From: Pseudoalteromonas sp. XMcav2-N
Lineage (GTDB): Bacteria > Pseudomonadota > Gammaproteobacteria > Enterobacterales > Alteromonadaceae
Assembly (NCBI RefSeq): GCF_024124545.1
Contig: NZ_JAMXSF010000008.1
Coordinates: 186,001 to 250,000, forward strand
Direction of reading: 5' to 3'
Length of the DNA stretch: 64,000 nucleotides
Every line of letters begins with the position of its first letter. Position 1 is the stretch's first letter. A program made the translations under genes and the position numbers. Under the pieces are notes generated by a model. That model made no database searches. It was not told the DNA's origin and worked only from the letters and a program-made list of their open reading frames with translations. Shown piece after piece: positions 34,357 through 44,242 of the stretch.

Positions 34357-36867
34357 TTAACTCTGTCGTAATGCCTGTGCAGGCGGCGCTTTAACCTGCT
34401 GTGAGGCTGGCAATAGAGTGGCCAGCAGTACCAGCAAAACGATAAAAGCAGGGATCCCAAGCAGTGCCCATACATAACTGTGAGGATCGATGTTCATGGC
34501 ACCTGTGAGCTGTCCACTGATCCACAATGCGCTAAGCCCTCCCACGATCAATCCCACTGCCAGCTGCACAAGCGCCTGCCTGACAAACAAACCAACCACT
34601 TGTTTATCTGGTGCGCCAAGGGCACGCCGGGTGGCAATCTCCTGACTGCGCAAAGTAATACTGTTCGCAGACATTGCATATATGCCACTGGCCGCTAAAA
34701 ACAAGGCGACCAGCCCGCCGACTAAGAACACCTGATTGAGTGATTCCATCAAAAGCAGAGGCTGTTTAATTAAACTCTGATAACTCTGGATCTGGTGTAC
34801 CGTTGCATCCGCATCCAGGTCAATCATAATCTGCTGCAACGCTGCAATGGCCTCTGACTCATCGCCACTATAATGCACAACTATATTCATCCACCACGAC
34901 CGCAGATCCATCAGGCCATAACCGGTATACGCAGTACTGGTGGCATTCAGTGTCGGGCCATGAATGCTATCAGACACCACACCGACTATGGTCCGCCATT
35001 CCGTATGCCAGCCTTCTCCATCCAGAGTACGAATACGCTGCCCCACAGCACTTCCTTGTGGAAACAACTCCCGTGCCATCGCCGCATTAATAATGACCGG
35101 TGATCCACTGTTACGCAGTTCACGGCTATCAATGGCCAGATCTGTCAGGTTAAAATCGCGCCCTTCAAGCAGCTGCATACCAACCGTTCGCCACGCATCC
35201 CGACTGACTACTTCAAAGTTCCACATTGGGTTGTCACTAAAAACCTCTGCCGCCTGTCCCTGGATCTCAAAGTGTGAGGTGCCTCCGCCAGTCCCCGGCA
35301 GACTACTGAAATAGGCAACACTACGCACGTTTGGAAGCTGTTCCAGCTTTTCTTTAAGCCCGTAGTAAAAATCATTGCGCTTTTTTCGCGCTTGTGGCTC
35401 CCCCCCATTCCAACGATAACTCCCCCACGCCAAACGCACCGACGCTGTCAGACGCTGCTCGGTTTGTACACCATAATCCGCCTGTTGCGCAGCCAAACTA
35501 CTCCCCAGGAGCATTGCTGCAATGACCAATACAACACAGGACAAAGCGATTTCGGTAATCACCAACACTTGATTCACTCTGCCCGCACGTTTACTGACAG
35601 CGCCCCGGGTACCGTCACGTAAAATGCCATTCATACCTCCTTGCAAAGCGCGCCACGCCGGAATTAAACCGGTGATGAGTATCATCATTAAAACAGCGCC
35701 AAGTAACATCCAGACTGAGTCCTGCGATAAACTGATCGTCCACCAGAAAGGGCGCGCGCCGTTCAATGCAAAGATCTCGTCTAATGCCTGATTGGTCAGT
35801 GTCATCCCCCATTGTGCCAGCCCCAATGCCAATATTCCGCCAAAACAACAAATCAACGTGCTTTCCCACAGCATCTGCAAAATTAAACGCCGCTGTGGCA
35901 CACCCAACGCAACCCGAATAGCCACATCACGGATCTGCTCATTCACCCGGGCCAGCAGTAAATTACCCACATTGATACAGGTCAGTAGTAAGATCAGTAA
36001 CACCACCAACATCATGGCCACCAGCACAGAATAGTGCTGATACAACACATCGACGCTGAGTTTAAATGGCACCGCCTGCAGGTAGCCACCCGGCACATCA
36101 GAACGCCAGGCAAACTCCTGTGGCAGGGTCTGGATCTGGCGCTGCAACAAAGTGGCCAGCTCATGTTGAAACTGTGCCAGAGTAACATCAGGCTTAAGCC
36201 TGGCTATTGCCTGCAACCCTCCCCGATTCGACGGGTTGGCAGGCGATAGCCGGGTCTGAGTCATAACTTGCCAAACCTGAGCCCGAGTTGGAAAAGCAAA
36301 CCCAGGCGGCATGACACCTATCACTTGTACAGGGATAGCCTCAACCTGAACCACCTGACCAATAATATCTTCATTGCCATCGAAGACCCGTTGCCAGATA
36401 TCATGGCTCAGCACCACCGCCGACTGTGTTTCATTTTGCTGATCAGCTGGGCCAAAGCTGCGGCCAAGCAAAGGTTGCACACCTGCTACCTCAAATATAT
36501 CCCACTGTACGTAGGTCAGATGCACTTTTTGCGACATGGCTTCATTACCCAGCCTGCCCACAGTGCGCACTGCCGATTGATACAGACTCATACTCTGTAA
36601 TAACGTACTGTGCGCCTGAATTCGATTCAGATGATAGGGATCAACACGCTGGCGGGCACCATGGGCAGCCTTAAACTCACCTGCAATGGCGATAAGCTGC
36701 GTATCCTGACCTAAAGTCAGGGGCTTAAACACCAGCTGCTGCATCAGCGTATAGGTGTACAAAGTCAGTGCCAGTCCCACCGTCACAATGGCAGTGGTGG
36801 TCAGGGTAAACAGGGGCTTTTTTAGCAGCAGCCGAACTGCATATCGGATATCTATCCAGGCAGGCAT
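34357..36867 (-). CDS. FtsX/MacB-type ABC transporter permease (module 1)
   Basis: Inner-membrane permease of 836 residues with two FtsX-like halves. An N-terminal helix (about 18-40, PLFTLTTTAIVTVGLALTL) is followed by a large MacB periplasmic domain and a first three-helix block (about 275-430). A second helix and periplasmic domain (about 465-700) lead to the last three-helix block. Motifs include VAIRVALGVPQRRLILQML and IATRRALGAPDKQVVGLFV. I chose ATG 36867, which has GAGGA upstream. It is the last gene of the HlyD-ATPase-permease operon. MacB-like systems export peptides, lipoproteins or antibiotics, or sense them; the substrate here is unknown. Confidence 0.9.
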   Translation of the reverse strand: MPAWIDIRYAVRLLLKKPLFTLTTTAIVTVGLALTLYTYTLMQQLVFKPLTLGQDTQLIAIAGEFKAAHGARQRVDPYHLNRIQAHSTLLQSMSLYQSAVRTVGRLGNEAMSQKVHLTYVQWDIFEVAGVQPLLGRSFGPADQQNETQSAVVLSHDIWQRVFDGNEDIIGQVVQVEAIPVQVIGVMPPGFAFPTRAQVWQVMTQTRLSPANPSNRGGLQAIARLKPDVTLAQFQHELATLLQRQIQTLPQEFAWRSDVPGGYLQAVPFKLSVDVLYQHYSVLVAMMLVVLLILLLTCINVGNLLLARVNEQIRDVAIRVALGVPQRRLILQMLWESTLICCFGGILALGLAQWGMTLTNQALDEIFALNGARPFWWTISLSQDSVWMLLGAVLMMILITGLIPAWRALQGGMNGILRDGTRGAVSKRAGRVNQVLVITEIALSCVVLVIAAMLLGSSLAAQQADYGVQTEQRLTASVRLAWGSYRWNGGEPQARKKRNDFYYGLKEKLEQLPNVRSVAYFSSLPGTGGGTSHFEIQGQAAEVFSDNPMWNFEVVSRDAWRTVGMQLLEGRDFNLTDLAIDSRELRNSGSPVIINAAMARELFPQGSAVGQRIRTLDGEGWHTEWRTIVGVVSDSIHGPTLNATSTAYTGYGLMDLRSWWMNIVVHYSGDESEAIAALQQIMIDLDADATVHQIQSYQSLIKQPLLLMESLNQVFLVGGLVALFLAASGIYAMSANSITLRSQEIATRRALGAPDKQVVGLFVRQALVQLAVGLIVGGLSALWISGQLTGAMNIDPHSYVWALLGIPAFIVLLVLLATLLPASQQVKAPPAQALRQS

Positions 36868-36895
36868 ACTCAATTCCTCTTCAGCAAATTGCCAC

Positions 36896-37627
36896 TTACA
36901 CTGCAATGGCAGAACGGGCAGACGTGGGACTGTCCGACACAATTGCGCCGTCTTTCATTTCAATGATCCGCCCGGTACGTAATGCCGACGACATATCGTG
37001 AGTTACCATGCAAATCGTCGCGCCGTTATGGTGCAGGGTATCTAGCAGTGCCATCACAGCTGCGGCATTTTTGGAATCCAGGTTGCCCGTTGGTTCATCC
37101 GCTAAAATAATTGCAGGCTCCCCAGCAATGGCTCTTGCGATGGCTACCCGTTGCTGTTGCCCCCCAGATAACTGAGCAGGAAAATGACTGGCGCGATGGA
37201 CCATCTCTACCTGCTCAAGTGCCGCCGCGACACGTGCACGTCGCTGCTCCCGGCTCAGGTCCTGGCGATATGTCAGTGGTAAAGCCACGTTATCCTCAAC
37301 ATTCAAGTCACTGATCAAGTTAAATGCCTGAAAAATGAACCCTATTTCCTTATTTCGGATCCGTGCGCGTTCATTTTTATCTATCTGTTCGGCATCATGC
37401 CCTGCCAGCCAGTAGGTACCATTGGTCGGGGTATCCAACAACCCAAGCTGAGCCAGCAAGGTCGACTTACCACAGCCGGATGGCCCTGTGATGGCAAGGT
37501 ACTCCCCTTTTGAGATCCGTAAATTGATGTTGTTCAGCGCCCAGGTTTCGACATCATCGCTGACAAAGACTTTATTTAACTGGTTTAGCTCAACCAGCAT
37601 TTCATGGTTTGGATATTGAGTTGACAT
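36896..37627 (-). CDS. MacB/LolD-type ABC transporter ATPase (module 1)
   Basis: ATPase subunit of 243 residues: Walker [10 protein letters not shown] (about 43-51), signature [14 protein letters not shown], Walker [13 protein letters not shown] and switch His in MVTHD. ATG 37627 is preceded by AGGAG; the longer frame overlaps the adaptor gene without family similarity. The permease start follows 28 bases after its stop. Confidence 0.94.
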
Positions 37628-37652
37628 ACTCGGTGCTCCTGTAGAGTGGGGG

Positions 37653-38930
37653 CTAATACTGCGCAGAAAACGGCTGACTAAAGCGCACGTTGCTGTGCTG
37701 CCAGTGTGACGTGTCCGACAAAACAATGCGGGTGCCGACCGTCGCACCATGTTCAATTTCAATGTACTGGCTGGACATATGACCAAATGTCAGAGGCTGC
37801 CGACTGGCCTGCTCGCCAGACTGATCCAGCAGATAAAGACTGGCCTGACTAAATCCACTGGCCATGACCGGGCGTTTAACAAATAAGGTATCAGCAAGCG
37901 TTGCTATCTCTATGACCCCATCCACACTCAAGGCCGGACGGACTTCTTTGGGCAGCGCTCCACTGAGCGCCACTTCCACCAGCACCGCGCTATCGCTGAC
38001 GGCCGGATCAATGCGCTGTACTGCGCCCTTGATCTGGCTTGCCCTGGTATCCAGCACGACAGCCTGACCAATCTGTACATCTTTGATCTGGTTTTCCGGT
38101 ACACGCAGCTGGGCAACAAACTGATCATTTCTGGCCAGCATAGCCAGGTTACTCCCGGCACTGATCTGCTGGCCAGGCTCCAGTGGCATGGCCTGGACAA
38201 TACTATCCATGGTGGCTATCACTGTAAGCCCATTCACCTGTTGTTCAATACGCTCGACCTGCTTGCGTAAACTGTTGAGTCTTGCGTTACCGGCGCGTAA
38301 CTGCGCTGCCAGGTTTTCGCGCCGTTTATCAAGACGCTGCTGCTCTAGTAAAAAACGCTGGCGAAACTGGGCGACATTGATTTTAACTTCTTCAAAATCA
38401 ATCTTAGAGACGGCAACGATCCCCTGCGCCAGCAGTTTTTCCTGTGCAGCCAGGGTCAGTTCGGCGCGTTCCAGATTTAGCTTTTCATCAACCACCGCAA
38501 TTTCCTGATCGAGCAAAGCAGACTCCAGCGTCACCTGCTCCGCATGGGTCTGTGCCTCCAGTGCCTGTAACTGCCAACGAGCCTGATCAAGCGACTCTTT
38601 TAGTTCAGGGTTACTCAGTTGCAGCAGTACATCCCCCTGCTTTACCTGCGCCCCGGCTTTCTTAAAAACCTGTTCCACCCGGCCATCTACCGGGGTCGTT
38701 ATCCAGCGGATCTGAGCGGGTACCAGCACGCCGCTGCCTCGTACCGTGACTTTTAGCTCCCCCCGGCGAACGGTATCAATCAACAACGGGGCTTTATCTA
38801 CCAGGTTGGTCGCGCTAGTATGACGGTTAAAAAACACAGCCAGGCAGGTCATCACAACCAAGCCCAGTGCACTCATCGCTTTGCCTTTATGTCTTAGCAG
38901 GGGGCTTTTTTTCGTTCTCACTATATCCAT
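37653..38930 (-). CDS. HlyD/MacA-type periplasmic adaptor (module 1)
   Basis: Membrane-fusion protein of 425 residues with an N-terminal membrane helix (about 18-36). The first lipoyl half is at GELKVTVRGSGVLVP, and a long coiled-coil hairpin spans about 110-225. A second lipoyl half (VIATMDSIVQAMPLEPGQQI) and beta-barrel parts follow. It spans the periplasm between the permease complex and an outer-membrane channel. It is the first gene of the module-1 operon and is divergent from the OmpR-type regulator. Confidence 0.9.
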   Translation of the reverse strand: MDIVRTKKSPLLRHKGKAMSALGLVVMTCLAVFFNRHTSATNLVDKAPLLIDTVRRGELKVTVRGSGVLVPAQIRWITTPVDGRVEQVFKKAGAQVKQGDVLLQLSNPELKESLDQARWQLQALEAQTHAEQVTLESALLDQEIAVVDEKLNLERAELTLAAQEKLLAQGIVAVSKIDFEEVKINVAQFRQRFLLEQQRLDKRRENLAAQLRAGNARLNSLRKQVERIEQQVNGLTVIATMDSIVQAMPLEPGQQISAGSNLAMLARNDQFVAQLRVPENQIKDVQIGQAVVLDTRASQIKGAVQRIDPAVSDSAVLVEVALSGALPKEVRPALSVDGVIEIATLADTLFVKRPVMASGFSQASLYLLDQSGEQASRQPLTFGHMSSQYIEIEHGATVGTRIVLSDTSHWQHSNVRFSQPFSAQY

Positions 38931-39106: not shown

Positions 39107-39796
39107 ATGAAACCCACCCTGCTGATCGTAGAAGATGAACCAGCCATTCTGCGTGGTCTGACCGATTTATTTGTTTTTCATGGCTATGACGTCGACAGTG
39201 AAATGGACGGTGCACAAGGTCTTAAACGAGCACAACAGAACGACTATGCCTGTATTTTGTTGGATGTCATGTTGCCATCAATGAGCGGCTTTGAGATCTG
39301 CGAAGCACTCAGACAAACCTCTGCAACTCAACCCATTATGATGTTGACGGCCAAAAGCACCGAGCAGGACATTATCAATGGCCTGAGCCTCGGAGCCGAT
39401 GACTATGTGGCCAAACCCTTTTCAACCTCGGAACTGGTATTGCGCGTCAATGCGCTGGTGCGCCGCTCGGGCTGGAGCCAGCATGAAGAAAAGCTGCTCC
39501 TGAGCAAAGACGTCTGTGTTTGTCCGCACACACTGACCGGAACGTCTTATCAGCAGCCCGTCAAATACACGCGTCGCGAGGTCAGTTTATTAAGTTACCT
39601 GCTACGTCAGAACAAACCCGTCAGTCGTGATGAGCTATTGCATCAGGTTTGGGGCTATAAAACCGTGGGGGACATAGATACGCGTACGGTCGATATTCAT
39701 ATTGCCAAGTTGCGCAAAAAAATAGAGCAGGATCCTAAGTCACCACGCCATCTGGTCACCCATCGTGGTGAAGGCTATCAGTTGTACACTCAGTAA
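39107..39796 (+). CDS. OmpR/PhoB-family response regulator
   Basis: A protein of 229 residues. The receiver (1-115) has EDEP, phospho-Asp in CILLDVML, Thr in MLTAKS and Lys in YVAKPF. A C-terminal winged helix (about 130-227) contains TRREVSLLSYLL and DTRTVDIHIAKLRKKIE. It is 10 bases upstream of the kinase gene and probably controls the divergent ABC operon and itself. Confidence 0.94.
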   Translation: MKPTLLIVEDEPAILRGLTDLFVFHGYDVDSEMDGAQGLKRAQQNDYACILLDVMLPSMSGFEICEALRQTSATQPIMMLTAKSTEQDIINGLSLGADDYVAKPFSTSELVLRVNALVRRSGWSQHEEKLLLSKDVCVCPHTLTGTSYQQPVKYTRREVSLLSYLLRQNKPVSRDELLHQVWGYKTVGDIDTRTVDIHIAKLRKKIEQDPKSPRHLVTHRGEGYQLYTQ

Positions 39797-39806
39797 CGGC
39801 ATCGCT

Positions 39807-41654
39807 ATGTGGTTTAAAGACACTCAACTAATGAGCTATGCACAGCGCAAACAGCGACTGCGTTGGCTGGCCGGCACCTTTTTACTGTGCCTGTTAATAC
39901 CACTGGGTATTTTGCTTTACTTTGGTTTTGCACAGCTTAAACAGAACCAACTGAACACCTATCAGGAACAGGCTCGTCACCTGATATTACAAATTGACCG
40001 CAAGATGTTTAAACGCCGGCTACTTACCGATGCGCTGCCAGTCAACGCATTTGACTACTATCAGGCGGTGTATAACCCTCTCACCGACGAAACCCTGCAG
40101 ATGCCCTCAGTACTGTCACATCTGGATCCTGCCAGACCAACGGCCACCCGCCCTATTCAGGGGCTGGTCGGTTATTTTCAGTTTGATGCACAGGGTCGGT
40201 TCAACAGTCCAATCTGGCCAGAGCCCCTGTCGGATAAGGACATTGTAAATCCAGGTTCAGAGCTAAAGAAAGCCTCACCCGAGTTACAACAACGTTACGA
40301 ACAGGCAAGATTCATATACCAGATCCTGTCTAAATCCGAGGCATTGCAGAGCAAGCTGTCGCAGGGATTAAGCAAAGAAAGCGGCCTGTACCAGCTGTGG
40401 TTTGATGTGCCTGGCTACTTTATTTTCTACCGTCTGCCCAAAGTTGGCGCGCAGCGAAAGTTGCAAGGTTATCTGGTCAGGCGAGACCCGTATTTACTGA
40501 GCCTTGTCAGTGAGTACCTGAGCCAAAGTCAGTTTGACCTCCCGGTTTTACTGACGCTGGATGCAGATAGTTCAAGCGGCTCCAATGAATTGTATAATGC
40601 AATGACATCTCAGCCGGAGCCAGTGCATTTTTTACTTACCCATTCACAGTCGCCTGCACGTCGCCTGGCACAAGCCGACATTCCCACTGACCTGAGTGAG
40701 CAACTCTTATATAGCGACACCCTGCGCTGGCCATTTAACAACTACACATTACACTTTACGACCCATACTCTGCCCATGAGTCAGACCATGTTGTACAGCA
40801 GTGTATTTGCCCTGTTGCTTATACTGACAATTCTGGGTGCCTGCTACGGATTTTATCGGCTGAGTGTTAAACAGCTGGCGCTTGCAGAGCAGAGAATGAA
40901 TTTTGTGTCTTCGGTCAGCCATGAGCTCAAAACACCGCTTACCGCCATTCGTATGTATGCCGAAATGCTGCGCTCAGGTACTGTGGTATCGACGGATGCC
41001 CGGCAAGACTATTACGGCTTTATTCACAGTGAAAGTGAGCGGCTAAGCCGTCTGATCGACAATATCCTGCTCCTGACACGGTTGAATCATCATGATCAGG
41101 ACGGACTGAGCCAGGTCAATCCCGAATACGTGCCAGTCACTATGCTGGCCGATATTATTCGTTCAAAGACATCAACCTTGCTAGATAAACACGCCTTTAC
41201 CCTGAATATGGCCATTGAGCCTCCTTTGTCTGAAGAGGCCGCCGTGTTAGTCGATCAGGATGCGTTTGCGCAGGTGGTGATTAACATTACCGAAAACACC
41301 GTCAAGTTCTTCGTTGCCGAGGGCATCACCGACCCGGCACGCAGACAGCTCGACATTACCTTTAGACGCAACGACCACAATCGAGACAAACTGGAGCTGG
41401 AGATCCGCGATTACGGTCCCGGTGTGTCGCAACAACAATGCGATAAGCTATTTGAGTTATTTTATCGGGGAGGCAGTGAACTAACCCGCACGACTCAGGG
41501 AACCGGGATTGGACTTGCGTTGGTCGCACAACTGGTCAGTGCTCAGCAAGGACAGATAACAGCCCACCGGATGACACCAGGCCTGGCGCTAAGGCTGACC
41601 TTACATACTCAACATCTTAACCTTATGATGCCCGAGTCGGTGACTCAGGCATAG
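39807..41654 (+). CDS. Membrane sensor histidine kinase
   Basis: A protein of 615 residues from ATG 39807 (MWFKDTQ), placed 10 bases after the regulator stop. One membrane helix lies near 20-40 and another near 325-347, enclosing a sensor region of about 285 residues with no recognised fold. HisKA carries FVSSVSHELKTPLTAIRMYAEM. HATPase carries NITENTVKF (N box), RDYGPGVSQQQ and GTGIGLALV. It pairs with the OmpR-type regulator. The ligand is unknown. Confidence 0.92.
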   Translation: MWFKDTQLMSYAQRKQRLRWLAGTFLLCLLIPLGILLYFGFAQLKQNQLNTYQEQARHLILQIDRKMFKRRLLTDALPVNAFDYYQAVYNPLTDETLQMPSVLSHLDPARPTATRPIQGLVGYFQFDAQGRFNSPIWPEPLSDKDIVNPGSELKKASPELQQRYEQARFIYQILSKSEALQSKLSQGLSKESGLYQLWFDVPGYFIFYRLPKVGAQRKLQGYLVRRDPYLLSLVSEYLSQSQFDLPVLLTLDADSSSGSNELYNAMTSQPEPVHFLLTHSQSPARRLAQADIPTDLSEQLLYSDTLRWPFNNYTLHFTTHTLPMSQTMLYSSVFALLLILTILGACYGFYRLSVKQLALAEQRMNFVSSVSHELKTPLTAIRMYAEMLRSGTVVSTDARQDYYGFIHSESERLSRLIDNILLLTRLNHHDQDGLSQVNPEYVPVTMLADIIRSKTSTLLDKHAFTLNMAIEPPLSEEAAVLVDQDAFAQVVINITENTVKFFVAEGITDPARRQLDITFRRNDHNRDKLELEIRDYGPGVSQQQCDKLFELFYRGGSELTRTTQGTGIGLALVAQLVSAQQGQITAHRMTPGLALRLTLHTQHLNLMMPESVTQA

Positions 41655-41667
41655 ATGTGTTGCGCCG

Positions 41668-41835
41668 TTATGCGGTCCAGCAGTAGGTTTTTGTCCAGCA
41701 CACCGGGTAACTGTGGCAAACAATGGGGTTACTGGCACTGGGCCCATTACCAGCGGCGATAGCCTGAGTATTGTGCGTGTCCAGTGTTTTGTGGCTGAGG
41801 TTTTTGACTGGTGATTTTTTGAGTTTGAGTTGCAT
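41668..41835 (-). CDS. Candidate RiPP/bacteriocin-like precursor peptide (55 aa)
   Basis: A short gene below usual length cut-offs. ATG at 41835 is preceded by AAGGA with an ideal 6-base gap, and TAA ends at 41668. The product has a basic, leader-like N-terminus (MQLKLKKSPVKNLS, then KTLD and TQAIAAGNG). The tail of roughly 24 residues is rich in Cys, Trp, Tyr and Thr, with CHSYPVCW and TYCWTA; the triplet CWT occurs twice. The AAG-NG junction resembles a double-glycine-type export/processing site. Leaders of this shape are typical of GG-leader natural-product peptides of Pseudoalteromonas and Bacteroidota (from memory of the family). No LanB/LanC, YcaO, radical SAM or C39 protease gene is in the window, so any modification is unproven. 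It is convergent with the kinase gene and divergent from a TonB receptor. Confidence 0.6.
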   Translation of the reverse strand: MQLKLKKSPVKNLSHKTLDTHNTQAIAAGNGPSASNPIVCHSYPVCWTKTYCWTA

Positions 41836-41920
41836 AGCTTGTCCTTACATGTGTTTTTGAGTGAGTCAGTGCCTTACTCCAGCACCAACAGAGTACACAC
41901 TCAGAAAACAGCATCTGAGC

Positions 41921-42049: not shown

Positions 42050-44242
42050 ATGATAAAAATGAAGCTGCGTGGTGCCAGTCAGCCCCTTTTGTTACTCTGT
42101 GCATGGCCATTTGCTGCCAGCATACAGGCTGTTGAAAGCGTCGACCTGTTTGAAATGAGCCTGGATGAGCTACTTAACGTGAACCTGACAGGCTCCGCAG
42201 TGCGTGATCTGAATCTGGAAACCACCCCTGCCAGTGCGAACCCATTCAACCTGAAAGCACTGCATTTACCCTTCAGCATAGATGTGATTGAGCGTAAAAC
42301 CATGCGTGCACGCGGCCTGACCTCAGTGACCGGTGCTGTCGAGAATCTGGTGGGAGTCATATCGGGTGAGTCACCCGCTGAACCTTCCAGCTTTGCTATG
42401 CGAGGCTTTATTCGCGACTCCGTTTCGGTTTTACGGGACGGCATTAAACTGGGCCCGGCTTCCATGACGATGCGGCCACACAACACCTTTAACCTGCAAC
42501 AAATAGATGTCATCAAAGGACCCGCCACATTACAATATGGTCAGGGAACGGCGTCTGGCGCCATCAATATGGTGACCAGAAAGCCGCAACTGGACGCCCC
42601 CACCAGCACAGAAGCCTTTGTCTCTCAGTCTCGCTTCGATACCCGGGAATGGGGCATAGGCATTAACCTTCCCTTTTCAGCACAAAGCGCAGCGCGGGTC
42701 GACATTAATAAAGCGCAGTCAGACGGCTGGGTTGACCAAACGCATTCCCACTCTTTAAATGCAACCACTTCCCTGCTCTGGCAATCTTCCCCTGACCTGA
42801 GCTGGTTGCTCAGTTTTGATTATCTGGAAGATGACCTGCCGGCTTATTGGGGCACGCCTTTTATTCCTGTGCAGTTTGCGCAGCAACCAATGGACGACAT
42901 AGTCGCTACCAACGACAGCCGGGTGCTGGATCAGCATACCCGCTATCTAAACTATAATGTTGAAGACAGCCGTTCAGACTCGGAACATTTATGGTCTCGC
43001 CTGAACATAAACTGGCAGCCAACAGACACACTCTCGCTGACCAATACCTTGTTTCACTTCAAAGCGGACCGCGCCTGGAAAAACGCAGAAAGCTATGTAT
43101 TTAATCCCGCAACAGGCTTAGTCGACCGGGACCGCTTTTTTGTCTTCCACGAGCACACCTTTTACGGCAACCAGTTCGAAGGGGTTTATCGCCACAAGAT
43201 TGGCAAGATGCAGCATCAGTTAGCCTTTGGCGCTGAGTTTAAAGTCACCGACTTCAGCCGGGAGCGAGGATTTCCCGCAGGAGACAGCGTCTCGTTATTT
43301 GAGCCTGTGGCTGGTCAGTTCGGCGCTTTGGACAAACACCTCAGTCCAACCGACATCCAGCAATGGGGCGTGTATGTTAATAATACGCTGTCGGTAACCC
43401 CGAGTTTGCGCCTGTTTGGCGGGCTGCGGCGCGACCACATTAAACTGGACAGAGACAACTATGATGATTCAGGAACCTTTCTTGTAGATGAAAGTTTTGA
43501 GCGTACTTTTACCCCGCTTGCATATCAGATAGGTGCGACGTATCAGCTCAACGAGTCACTCAGCCTGTATACGCACTGGAGCACCGGGCACGATCCGGTC
43601 GGATCCAATATTTATCTGGTCAACGCCAGTGAAAACTTCGATTTTACAGATATACGCCAGTACGAAGCGGGAATGAAAGCCATACTGCCGGCCTGGCACA
43701 GTGAATTGACCGCGGCCTGGTATAATATAGCTCGCCGTAACATCCTGCTACTGACATCTCATGATACGGTAGGTAACTCGGGGACCCATGTTGCGCGGGG
43801 GCTAGAACTGGCGATCACCAGTCAGCCAACGCCCCATTTTCGTGTCGGTGGCAATATCGCCTACACTAATGCGAGTTATGAGTCTTTTGTCGACCCGGAT
43901 TTTGGCGTGAATGCCAGTGGCCATACCCCGCCTAATGTGCCTGAAATTGTCGCCAATGCTTGGTTTAGCTGGGATCAGGTCCTGTCATTACCGCTGGAAA
44001 TTGGTGGGGGTATACGTCATGTCAGTGACCGCTACGCCAATTTTCAAAATTCGGTTACCTTCAAACGCTATGAGACGCTGACCCTGTTTGCTGCCTATCA
44101 GTTTGAGCATACCCGCTTTAATCTCAGCGTACGCAATCTACTGAACGAAGAATATGTACCATGGGCGGATATTTTCTATCCCGCTCAGGCTGCTATTGCC
44201 GCACCCAGAACGGTCGAGTTGAGTGTGCATATTAGTTACTGA
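42050..44242 (+). CDS. TonB-dependent outer-membrane receptor (siderophore-type)
   Basis: A protein of 730 residues. A signal peptide (to about 27) is followed by a short N-terminal segment and the plug domain (about 75-190). Plug motifs include MRGFIRDSVSVLRDGIKLGP, IDVIKGPATLQYGQGTASGA and INMVTRKPQ. A 22-stranded barrel follows, ending TVELSVHISY with the terminal aromatic residue. The pattern matches ferric-siderophore receptors such as FhuE/FpvA/FoxA types. No TonB-box signalling extension is evident. ATG 42059 is an alternative start. Confidence 0.88.
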   Translation: MIKMKLRGASQPLLLLCAWPFAASIQAVESVDLFEMSLDELLNVNLTGSAVRDLNLETTPASANPFNLKALHLPFSIDVIERKTMRARGLTSVTGAVENLVGVISGESPAEPSSFAMRGFIRDSVSVLRDGIKLGPASMTMRPHNTFNLQQIDVIKGPATLQYGQGTASGAINMVTRKPQLDAPTSTEAFVSQSRFDTREWGIGINLPFSAQSAARVDINKAQSDGWVDQTHSHSLNATTSLLWQSSPDLSWLLSFDYLEDDLPAYWGTPFIPVQFAQQPMDDIVATNDSRVLDQHTRYLNYNVEDSRSDSEHLWSRLNINWQPTDTLSLTNTLFHFKADRAWKNAESYVFNPATGLVDRDRFFVFHEHTFYGNQFEGVYRHKIGKMQHQLAFGAEFKVTDFSRERGFPAGDSVSLFEPVAGQFGALDKHLSPTDIQQWGVYVNNTLSVTPSLRLFGGLRRDHIKLDRDNYDDSGTFLVDESFERTFTPLAYQIGATYQLNESLSLYTHWSTGHDPVGSNIYLVNASENFDFTDIRQYEAGMKAILPAWHSELTAAWYNIARRNILLLTSHDTVGNSGTHVARGLELAITSQPTPHFRVGGNIAYTNASYESFVDPDFGVNASGHTPPNVPEIVANAWFSWDQVLSLPLEIGGGIRHVSDRYANFQNSVTFKRYETLTLFAAYQFEHTRFNLSVRNLLNEEYVPWADIFYPAQAAIAAPRTVELSVHISY

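What the first reader, a model, noticed from the sequence alone, without database searches (positions are those of the whole stretch)
41668..41835. Hidden 55-aa candidate RiPP/bacteriocin precursor between two peptide-export-like modules
Seen directly: a minus-strand ORF with an ideal AAGGA-N6-ATG start, a basic leader-like N-terminus (KKSPVKNLS), a TQAIAAGNG junction and a Cys/Trp/Tyr/Thr-rich tail with CWT twice. Known: GG-leader natural-product peptides of marine gammaproteobacteria and Bacteroidota have this architecture and are processed at Gly-Gly or Ala-Gly sites. Inference: it is exported by one of the nearby adaptor/ATPase/FtsX systems and sensed by a neighbouring two-component system. 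No modifying enzyme is in the window, so it may be unmodified, modified in trans, or disulfide-bonded.
Basis: partly seen in the sequence, partly recalled or inferred. Interest (0 to 1): 0.85.

Follow-up and report, generated by a model that had tools for sequence, protein, structure and literature searches.

The report
Dispersed class I lanthipeptide precursor gene
The hidden 55-residue gene is real and is one of about sixty scattered genes in this marine bacterium that share a leader but carry different tails, apparently all turned into ring-bearing peptides by one enzyme set encoded elsewhere in the genome.

Summary
The ORF at 41668-41835(-) is real and under purifying selection: all 8 nucleotide differences from its closest ortholog are silent. 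It belongs to a large family with a conserved leader ending in a GG-like site and a hypervariable Cys-rich core. The own genome (probably Pseudoalteromonas rubra) has 64 matches on 20 contigs and one LanB, beside LanC, a C39-peptidase ABC exporter and an HlyD adaptor, on another contig without precursors. All 51 of 108 genus genomes with LanB have 2 or more precursors; the 57 without have none better than E 0.0078. In the own-genome cores 183 of 192 Cys can be given their own Ser/Thr 3-8 residues N-terminal, against 132.8 +/- 5.2 in shuffles, as lanthionine rings would need.

So: a class I lanthipeptide precursor, probably modified and exported in trans, in a prochlorosin-like arrangement. The adjacent FtsX exporter and two-component system are probably unrelated: the permease ortholog is missing from genome G062, where the peptide is intact. 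Class I lanthipeptides of this genus are known; I found no description of the dispersed repertoire in the papers searched. Modification and function are untested.

The parts
41668..41835 (-). precursor peptide gene (55 aa, stop codon included)
   Evidence: orthologs and family; divergence from closest ortholog all synonymous
41749..41835 (-). leader peptide, residues 1-29 (MQLKLKKSPVKNLSHKTLDTHNTQAIAAG)
   Evidence: conserved leader pattern in 62 own-genome paralogs; orthologs in G054/G062 read AGG at its end. Boundary is inferred.
41671..41748 (-). core peptide, residues 30-55 (NGPSASNPIVCHSYPVCWTKTYCWTA)
   Evidence: 3 of 3 Cys can be given a distinct Ser/Thr 3-8 residues N-terminal. Ring assignment is inferred.
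41842..41846 (-). ribosome-binding site AAGGA, 6 nt before ATG
   Evidence: read directly; kept in the three orthologs
34357..38930 (-). MacB/FtsX permease, ABC ATPase, HlyD adaptor: neighbour, probably not part of the system
   Evidence: Pfam; no match around the ortholog in G062, permease ortholog absent from G062
39107..41654 (+). response regulator and histidine kinase: neighbour, probably not part of the system
   Evidence: Pfam; in G062 only kinase residues 435-629 match at this locus and no regulator
42050..44242 (+). TonB-dependent receptor: neighbour of unknown relevance
   Evidence: Pfam; within 4 kb of the orthologs in G053, G054, G062; in a sample of 41 relatives without those three, only the own genome has it at E <= 1e-50

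Best explanation
The gene encodes a class I lanthipeptide precursor. Its 29-residue leader is recognised by one enzyme set encoded elsewhere: LanB dehydrates Ser/Thr in the core using glutamyl-tRNA, LanC adds each Cys to a dehydrated residue N-terminal of it, giving about three (methyl)lanthionine rings in a row, and the C39-peptidase ABC transporter with its HlyD adaptor cuts after the GG-like site and exports the product. The same machinery serves about sixty other precursors scattered over the genome, so the bacterium makes a library of ringed peptides, as cyanobacteria do with prochlorosins but with a LanB/LanC pair instead of LanM. Shown: the gene family, selection on the frame, the enzymes, co-occurrence, dispersal, Ser/Thr-Cys spacing. 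Inferred: substrate-enzyme pairing, ring pattern, cleavage site, export, and biological role (probably secreted effectors in competition or signalling).
For: Own genome: LanB (Lant_dehydr_N E 3.6e-133, Lant_dehydr_C E 2.9e-61), LanC, C39-ABC and HlyD in one row, same strand, on G000:C5; the single LanB match is there. LanC carries WCYG and CHG aligned to solved LanC-like proteins; LanB matches NisB, E about 5e-26; the transporter matches C39-type bacteriocin transporters with aligned Cys, His, Asp. LanB in 51 of 108 genus genomes, all 51 with 2 or more precursors; of 57 without LanB, 5 have one weak match each (E 0.0078-0.067) and 52 none. Order sample of 394: the 5 genomes with precursors are the 5 with strong LanB (E below 1e-50). 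64 own-genome matches on 20 contigs, none on C5; 62 recovered as ORFs in 48 loci. In G062 (2 contigs) 67 precursors on both, none within 10 kb of the LanB-to-HlyD row. 183 of 192 Cys matched to their own N-terminal Ser/Thr, z 9.6; C-terminal control z -0.5; three other residue classes z -0.4 to -1.6. Other genomes 135 of 139, shuffles 97.8 +/- 4.4. Cys: 192 in cores, 3 in leaders. G053 has the identical peptide and only one LanC-family match, the free-standing one. Five of 43 members weakly match NCBIfam class I lanthipeptide leader NF038158.
Against: No expression or mass data. The window peptide has no Pfam, NCBIfam or PHROG match. Its own junction is AAG, not GG. G001 has LanB and 3 precursors but no LanC match. 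A class III LanKC is also in the genome and could use some members; in G062 it lies within 5 kb of the LanB row and 9 of 67 precursors lie within 50 kb of that row, so dispersal is not total. 25 of 36 named LanB loci do have a local precursor. 3 of 62 cores have no Cys and 9 of 192 Cys find no partner. Per-offset counts of Asn/Gln/Asp/Glu in other genomes also deviate (z 3.3 at -5, 3.9 at -2). Genomes are related, so 51 of 51 are not independent events. The distance range 3-8 was chosen after seeing the own-genome spacing.
Confidence: 0.85

Rival explanations
1. An unmodified or disulfide-bonded double-glycine peptide (class II bacteriocin or microcin) that only uses the C39 exporter.
For: GG-like leader; C39-ABC transporter present; 2-7 Cys in 55 of 62 cores.
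Against: The one-sided Ser/Thr spacing (183 of 192 N-terminal, z 9.6; C-terminal z -0.5) is not expected for disulfides; co-occurrence with LanB.
Confidence: 0.07
2. Precursor for the class III LanKC at G000:C25 rather than for LanB/LanC.
For: LanKC (RamC_N, kinase, LanC-like) with ABC, HlyD and FtsX genes exists in the own genome; four recovered family members lie on the same contig.
Against: G053 holds an identical precursor but only one LanC-family match, the free-standing one (G053 is a draft). LanC-family matches in long frames (890-931 aa) occur in 10 of 108 genomes, against 51 with precursors and LanB; only the own-genome one was checked with Pfam.
Confidence: 0.05
3. A signal peptide exported by the adjacent FtsX system and sensed by the adjacent two-component system.
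For: Physical neighbourhood.
Against: These genes are absent or truncated around the 98% identical ortholog in G062 and the permease ortholog is not elsewhere in G062; no general neighbour across 40 contexts.
Confidence: 0.03

Closest known systems
Pseudorosins A-C (P. flavipulchra S16, dehydratase PsfB) and the pci cluster of P. citrea (class I lanthipeptides)
   Same: Same genus and class; family members with the same leader lie beside the lanB locus in P. flavipulchra contig L206. That these are the pseudorosin precursors is inferred: Wang et al. 2023 is not held; I saw one introduction sentence about it in PMC12819058 and its citation in PMC10885120 and PMC10727000. PMC9993889 (pci) was read in passages.
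   Different: pci is drawn there as one gene cluster; here LanB has no precursor beside it and about sixty elsewhere. Whether Wang et al. noted distant precursors is unknown to me.
Prochlorosins (marine picocyanobacteria)
   Same: One promiscuous synthetase, many precursors, many of them far from it (passages of PMC7268733 and PMC12328550; abstract start of PMC10783134 in the listing).
   Different: Prochlorosins use class II LanM and Nif11 leaders; here class I LanB plus LanC and a short, unrelated leader.
Class I lanthipeptide leaders NF038158 and NF038153 of NCBIfam (Bacteroidota origin recalled)
   Same: Weak similarity in 5 and 1 of 43 members.
   Different: Best E 0.0056; no match for the window peptide.
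Thalassomonasins A and B (Thalassomonas actiniarum)
   Same: Nearest MIBiG cluster reported for a class I locus of P. viridis with C39, HlyD-type and nucleotidyltransferase genes (passages of PMC11015633).
   Different: Not compared by sequence here.

Membership tests
class I lanthipeptide (LanA) | full-length LanB (both domains) encoded in the genome | tested here: met
   PF04738 and PF14028 on the 1049-aa protein
class I lanthipeptide (LanA) | free-standing LanC cyclase | tested here: met
   PF05147; WCYG and CHG aligned (zinc role recalled)
class I lanthipeptide (LanA) | leader followed by core with Ser/Thr and Cys able to pair | tested here: met
   window core 3 of 3 Cys
class I lanthipeptide (LanA) | lanthionine in the product, made by LanB and LanC | not testable with these tools
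   needs mass spectrometry or reconstitution
class I lanthipeptide (LanA) | usual but not defining: precursor gene next to lanB/lanC | tested here: not met
   no match on contig C5; none in L097 or in P. rubra L184, L195, L208 at E <= 1e-4. C5 ends about 3 kb past the row; by comparison with G062 the next contig is C25, whose first precursor would be about 15 kb away
prochlorosins | class II LanM synthetase | tested here: not met
   only two LanC-family matches in own genome: free LanC and a RamC_N/kinase class III protein
prochlorosins | Nif11-type leader | tested here: not met
   no match for the window peptide, none listed for 43 members
prochlorosins (works like) | many dispersed precursors for one synthetase | tested here: met
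   number and dispersal met; that one synthetase modifies them was not testable
C39-exported double-glycine peptides | GG/GA-like junction and a C39-ABC transporter | tested here: met
   the window peptide has AAG; cleavage itself not tested

The most novel reading that the evidence does not exclude
Pseudoalteromonas runs a genome-wide natural combinatorial library: one tRNA-dependent LanB/LanC pair and one C39 exporter serve sixty or more hypervariable precursors per genome, many from their own promoters, the class I counterpart of prochlorosins. It arose by spread of precursor genes away from an ancestral compact cluster of the kind seen in Colwellia and P. flavipulchra.
Probability: 0.75. 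Interest if true: 0.82.

Novelty: new variant of a known kind. Interest (0 to 1): 0.72.

Why it matters
Cluster-based mining looks near the enzymes (one pipeline: within seven genes of LanC, PMC7268733) and would miss nearly all of these genes in P. rubra. If the pairing is right, class I dehydratases, which need glutamyl-tRNA, can be as promiscuous as ProcM, with 60 or more natural substrates to learn the rules from, and the genus holds a large store of ringed peptides. It also makes testable why a bacterium keeps so many different ones.

Tried and rejected
Family libraries gave nothing for the single peptide. A shared-neighbour search over 666 genes of 40 contexts gave no general partner; the widest cluster reached 8 of 40 loci, and most of the recurrent ones come from sets of orthologous loci. 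The link to the adjacent FtsX exporter and two-component system was tested by synteny and set aside. Class III LanKC was considered and kept as a rival. In upstream regions of 77 members 67 have an AGGA/GGAG/AAGG core, and TTGACA-like words are enriched (TTGACA in 16, 4.3 expected), which suggests separate promoters for some; no family-specific operator was established. Papers looked at in passages without use for the question: PMC10456417, PMC10880069, PMC9576775. One search failed on strand handling and was redone. Not tested: radical SAM, YcaO and other RiPP enzymes in the own genome; no structure was predicted; no tree was built.

Rows dropped: 2 of the 64 matches (C9:101010, C3:146989) were not recovered as ORFs. 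One search left out 4 of 62 non-own sequences with no clear junction and reduced 58 to 43 by similarity. In one search at most 58 candidates per genome were scored, so counts for 8 genomes are lower bounds; at most 15 were scored.

Full report
Observation. The ORF is present as described: 55 aa, AAGGA-N6-ATG, leader-like start, AAG junction, two CWT. It lies between the end of a histidine kinase gene (41654) and the start of a TonB-dependent receptor gene (42050). Orthologs: G053 identical, G054 and G062 98%. G000 vs G053: 8 nucleotide differences, all synonymous third positions. G000 vs G054 or G062: 10 each, 9 synonymous and 1 Ala-to-Gly change that turns AAG into AGG. Selection acts on this frame.

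Family. A single-sequence search matched 57 of 108 genus genomes at E <= 1, many with several paralogs; its weakest single matches are probably chance. A profile of 43 members (A1) gave 64 matches at E <= 0.006 in the own genome, the next being 0.11. 62 of the 64 were recovered as ORFs, on 20 contigs and in 48 loci after merging members within 3 kb. Leader: K at position 7 in 56 of 62, K11 in 54, L13 in 54, G at -2 in 58, G or A at -1 in 62; the first twelve core columns are highly variable, entropy 3.6-4.0 bits. Cys: 3 of 1885 leader residues, 192 of 1723 core residues. No library names the window peptide; 5 of 43 members match NCBIfam NF038158 (class I lanthipeptide leader) weakly, best E 0.0056; 4 match TIGR04149 (rSAM-modified RiPP), best E 0.0014; 4 match Pfam Bacteroid_pep, best E 0.0055.

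Machinery. No neighbour is shared generally across 40 contexts; the widest gene cluster reaches 8. LanC family: 51 of 108 genomes. In the own genome, contig C5 holds, on one strand, an HlyD adaptor, a C39-peptidase ABC transporter, LanC and a full LanB, beside a glmU-like gene (name recalled from the protein). Comparison with solved structures agrees. A class III LanKC with ABC, HlyD and FtsX genes is on C25.

Co-occurrence. LanB: 51 of 108. Precursors: 56 of 108 at E <= 0.1. All 51 LanB genomes have 2 to at least 58 precursors (median 23); the 5 precursor-only genomes have one match each, E 0.0078-0.067; 52 genomes have neither. If genomes were independent the chance would be about 5e-32, but they are related, so this is only an indication. 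LanC is missing in one LanB genome (G001) and weakly present in one genome without LanB (G017). In 394 genomes of the order, precursors at E <= 0.01 occur in 5, the same 5 that have a LanB match below 1e-50; 3 genomes with weaker LanB-like matches (two over the family cut-off) have none, with at most 15 candidates scored per genome. Named LanB relatives are P. rubra (92-97%), P. luteoviolacea, P. flavipulchra, P. piscicida and others, two Colwellia MAGs (53-59%) and a Psychrobium fragment. The own species is inferred from the 97% LanB matches to P. rubra strains.

Dispersal. No own-genome precursor lies on C5, but C5 ends about 3 kb beyond the enzyme row, and in G062 the LanKC locus that opens C25 follows the row directly, so C25 with its four recovered precursors is probably next to it. 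In G062, in 2 contigs, 67 precursors lie on both (47 and 20); the nearest is 15 kb from the row, none is within 10 kb, 9 are within 50 kb. Among 36 named LanB loci 25 have a precursor within the fetched stretch at E <= 1e-4 and 11 do not; P. rubra has none, P. flavipulchra and P. piscicida have local members, the two Colwellia MAGs have 1 and 3. This suggests a compact ancestor and later spread; no tree was built.

Ring signature. Around Cys in own-genome cores, Ser/Thr are enriched at -3 to -7 (z 2.7 to 4.5) and +2 (66 vs 33.7, z 6.5), depleted at -2, +1 and +5 to +7 (z -2.3 to -4.3). With Cys fixed and the other residues shuffled, 183 of 192 Cys can each be given a distinct Ser/Thr 3-8 residues N-terminal (mean 132.8, sd 5.2, maximum 147 of 200 shuffles); C-terminal 96 of 192 (mean 98.5); Asn/Gln/Asp/Glu, Gly/Ala/Pro and aromatic/His controls z -1.1, -1.6, -0.4. 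In 43 dereplicated cores of other genomes 135 of 139 (mean 97.8, sd 4.4). Against this: in the per-offset table of those other genomes Asn/Gln/Asp/Glu also deviate (z 3.3 at -5, 3.9 at -2, -2.4 at -4), and the range 3-8 was chosen after the first spacing table. The window core scores 3 of 3.

Neighbourhood. The window has a MacB/FtsX module on the left, an HlyD protein on the right, a two-component system, a TonB-dependent receptor and a second, sigma-54 type system. In G062 the left exporter genes and the regulator give no match around the 98% identical peptide and only kinase residues 435-629 remain; the permease ortholog, 94-96% identical in G053 and G054, has no match above 31% anywhere in G062. 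In G053 the receptor lies about 3.5 kb further away, with a second pair of two-component-like matches between. So these genes are probably chance neighbours. The receptor stays within 4 kb in all four genomes, so a role for it is not excluded.

Known work. Class I lanthipeptides of this genus: pseudorosins A-C (PMC12819058, introduction passage; original not held) and pci of P. citrea expressed in E. coli (PMC9993889, passages). P. viridis genome mining reports a class I locus with nucleotidyltransferase, C39 and HlyD-type genes; the passages seen do not mention dispersed precursors (PMC11015633). Dispersed precursors are known for prochlorosins; the lanthipeptide survey PMC7268733 looked only within seven genes of LanC. 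In the rows listed by my ten searches (several lists were cut) I saw no paper on a dispersed class I repertoire. Subscription journals are mostly not held, so one may exist.

Verdict. A real gene and, on the evidence, a member of a known class, in an arrangement that looks new for that class.

Noticed in passing
L098:401-9306 (G000:C25): Class III LanKC followed by an ABC exporter and an HlyD/ABC/FtsX module like those in the window; four precursor-family members further along the same contig.
   Followed up: partly
L101, L114, L116, L190, L192, L194, L199: Family members with no Cys and N-T-D-T type cores, some repeated or in tandem copies: same leader but unable to form lanthionine.
   Followed up: no
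L104:3530-6418 (G077:C38): Second LanB/LanC pair of that genome with a divergent-leader precursor and a radical-SAM-like protein nearby (name from its CxxxCxxC start, recalled).
   Followed up: no
L187, L188, L202, L212: Three or four tandem precursors with Cys-free SSDTSVT cores about 7 kb before lanB in P. luteoviolacea and a relative; one copy of L188 is shorter.
   Followed up: no
L048:8736-10398 and L072:9577-10586: Groups of four precursors beside an exporter-like ABC protein and an NRPS-like protein (protein names by eye).
   Followed up: no
L097:5918-6490: A 190-aa protein directly after LanB with no Pfam match; proteins of 170-210 aa follow LanB at several other loci.
   Followed up: no
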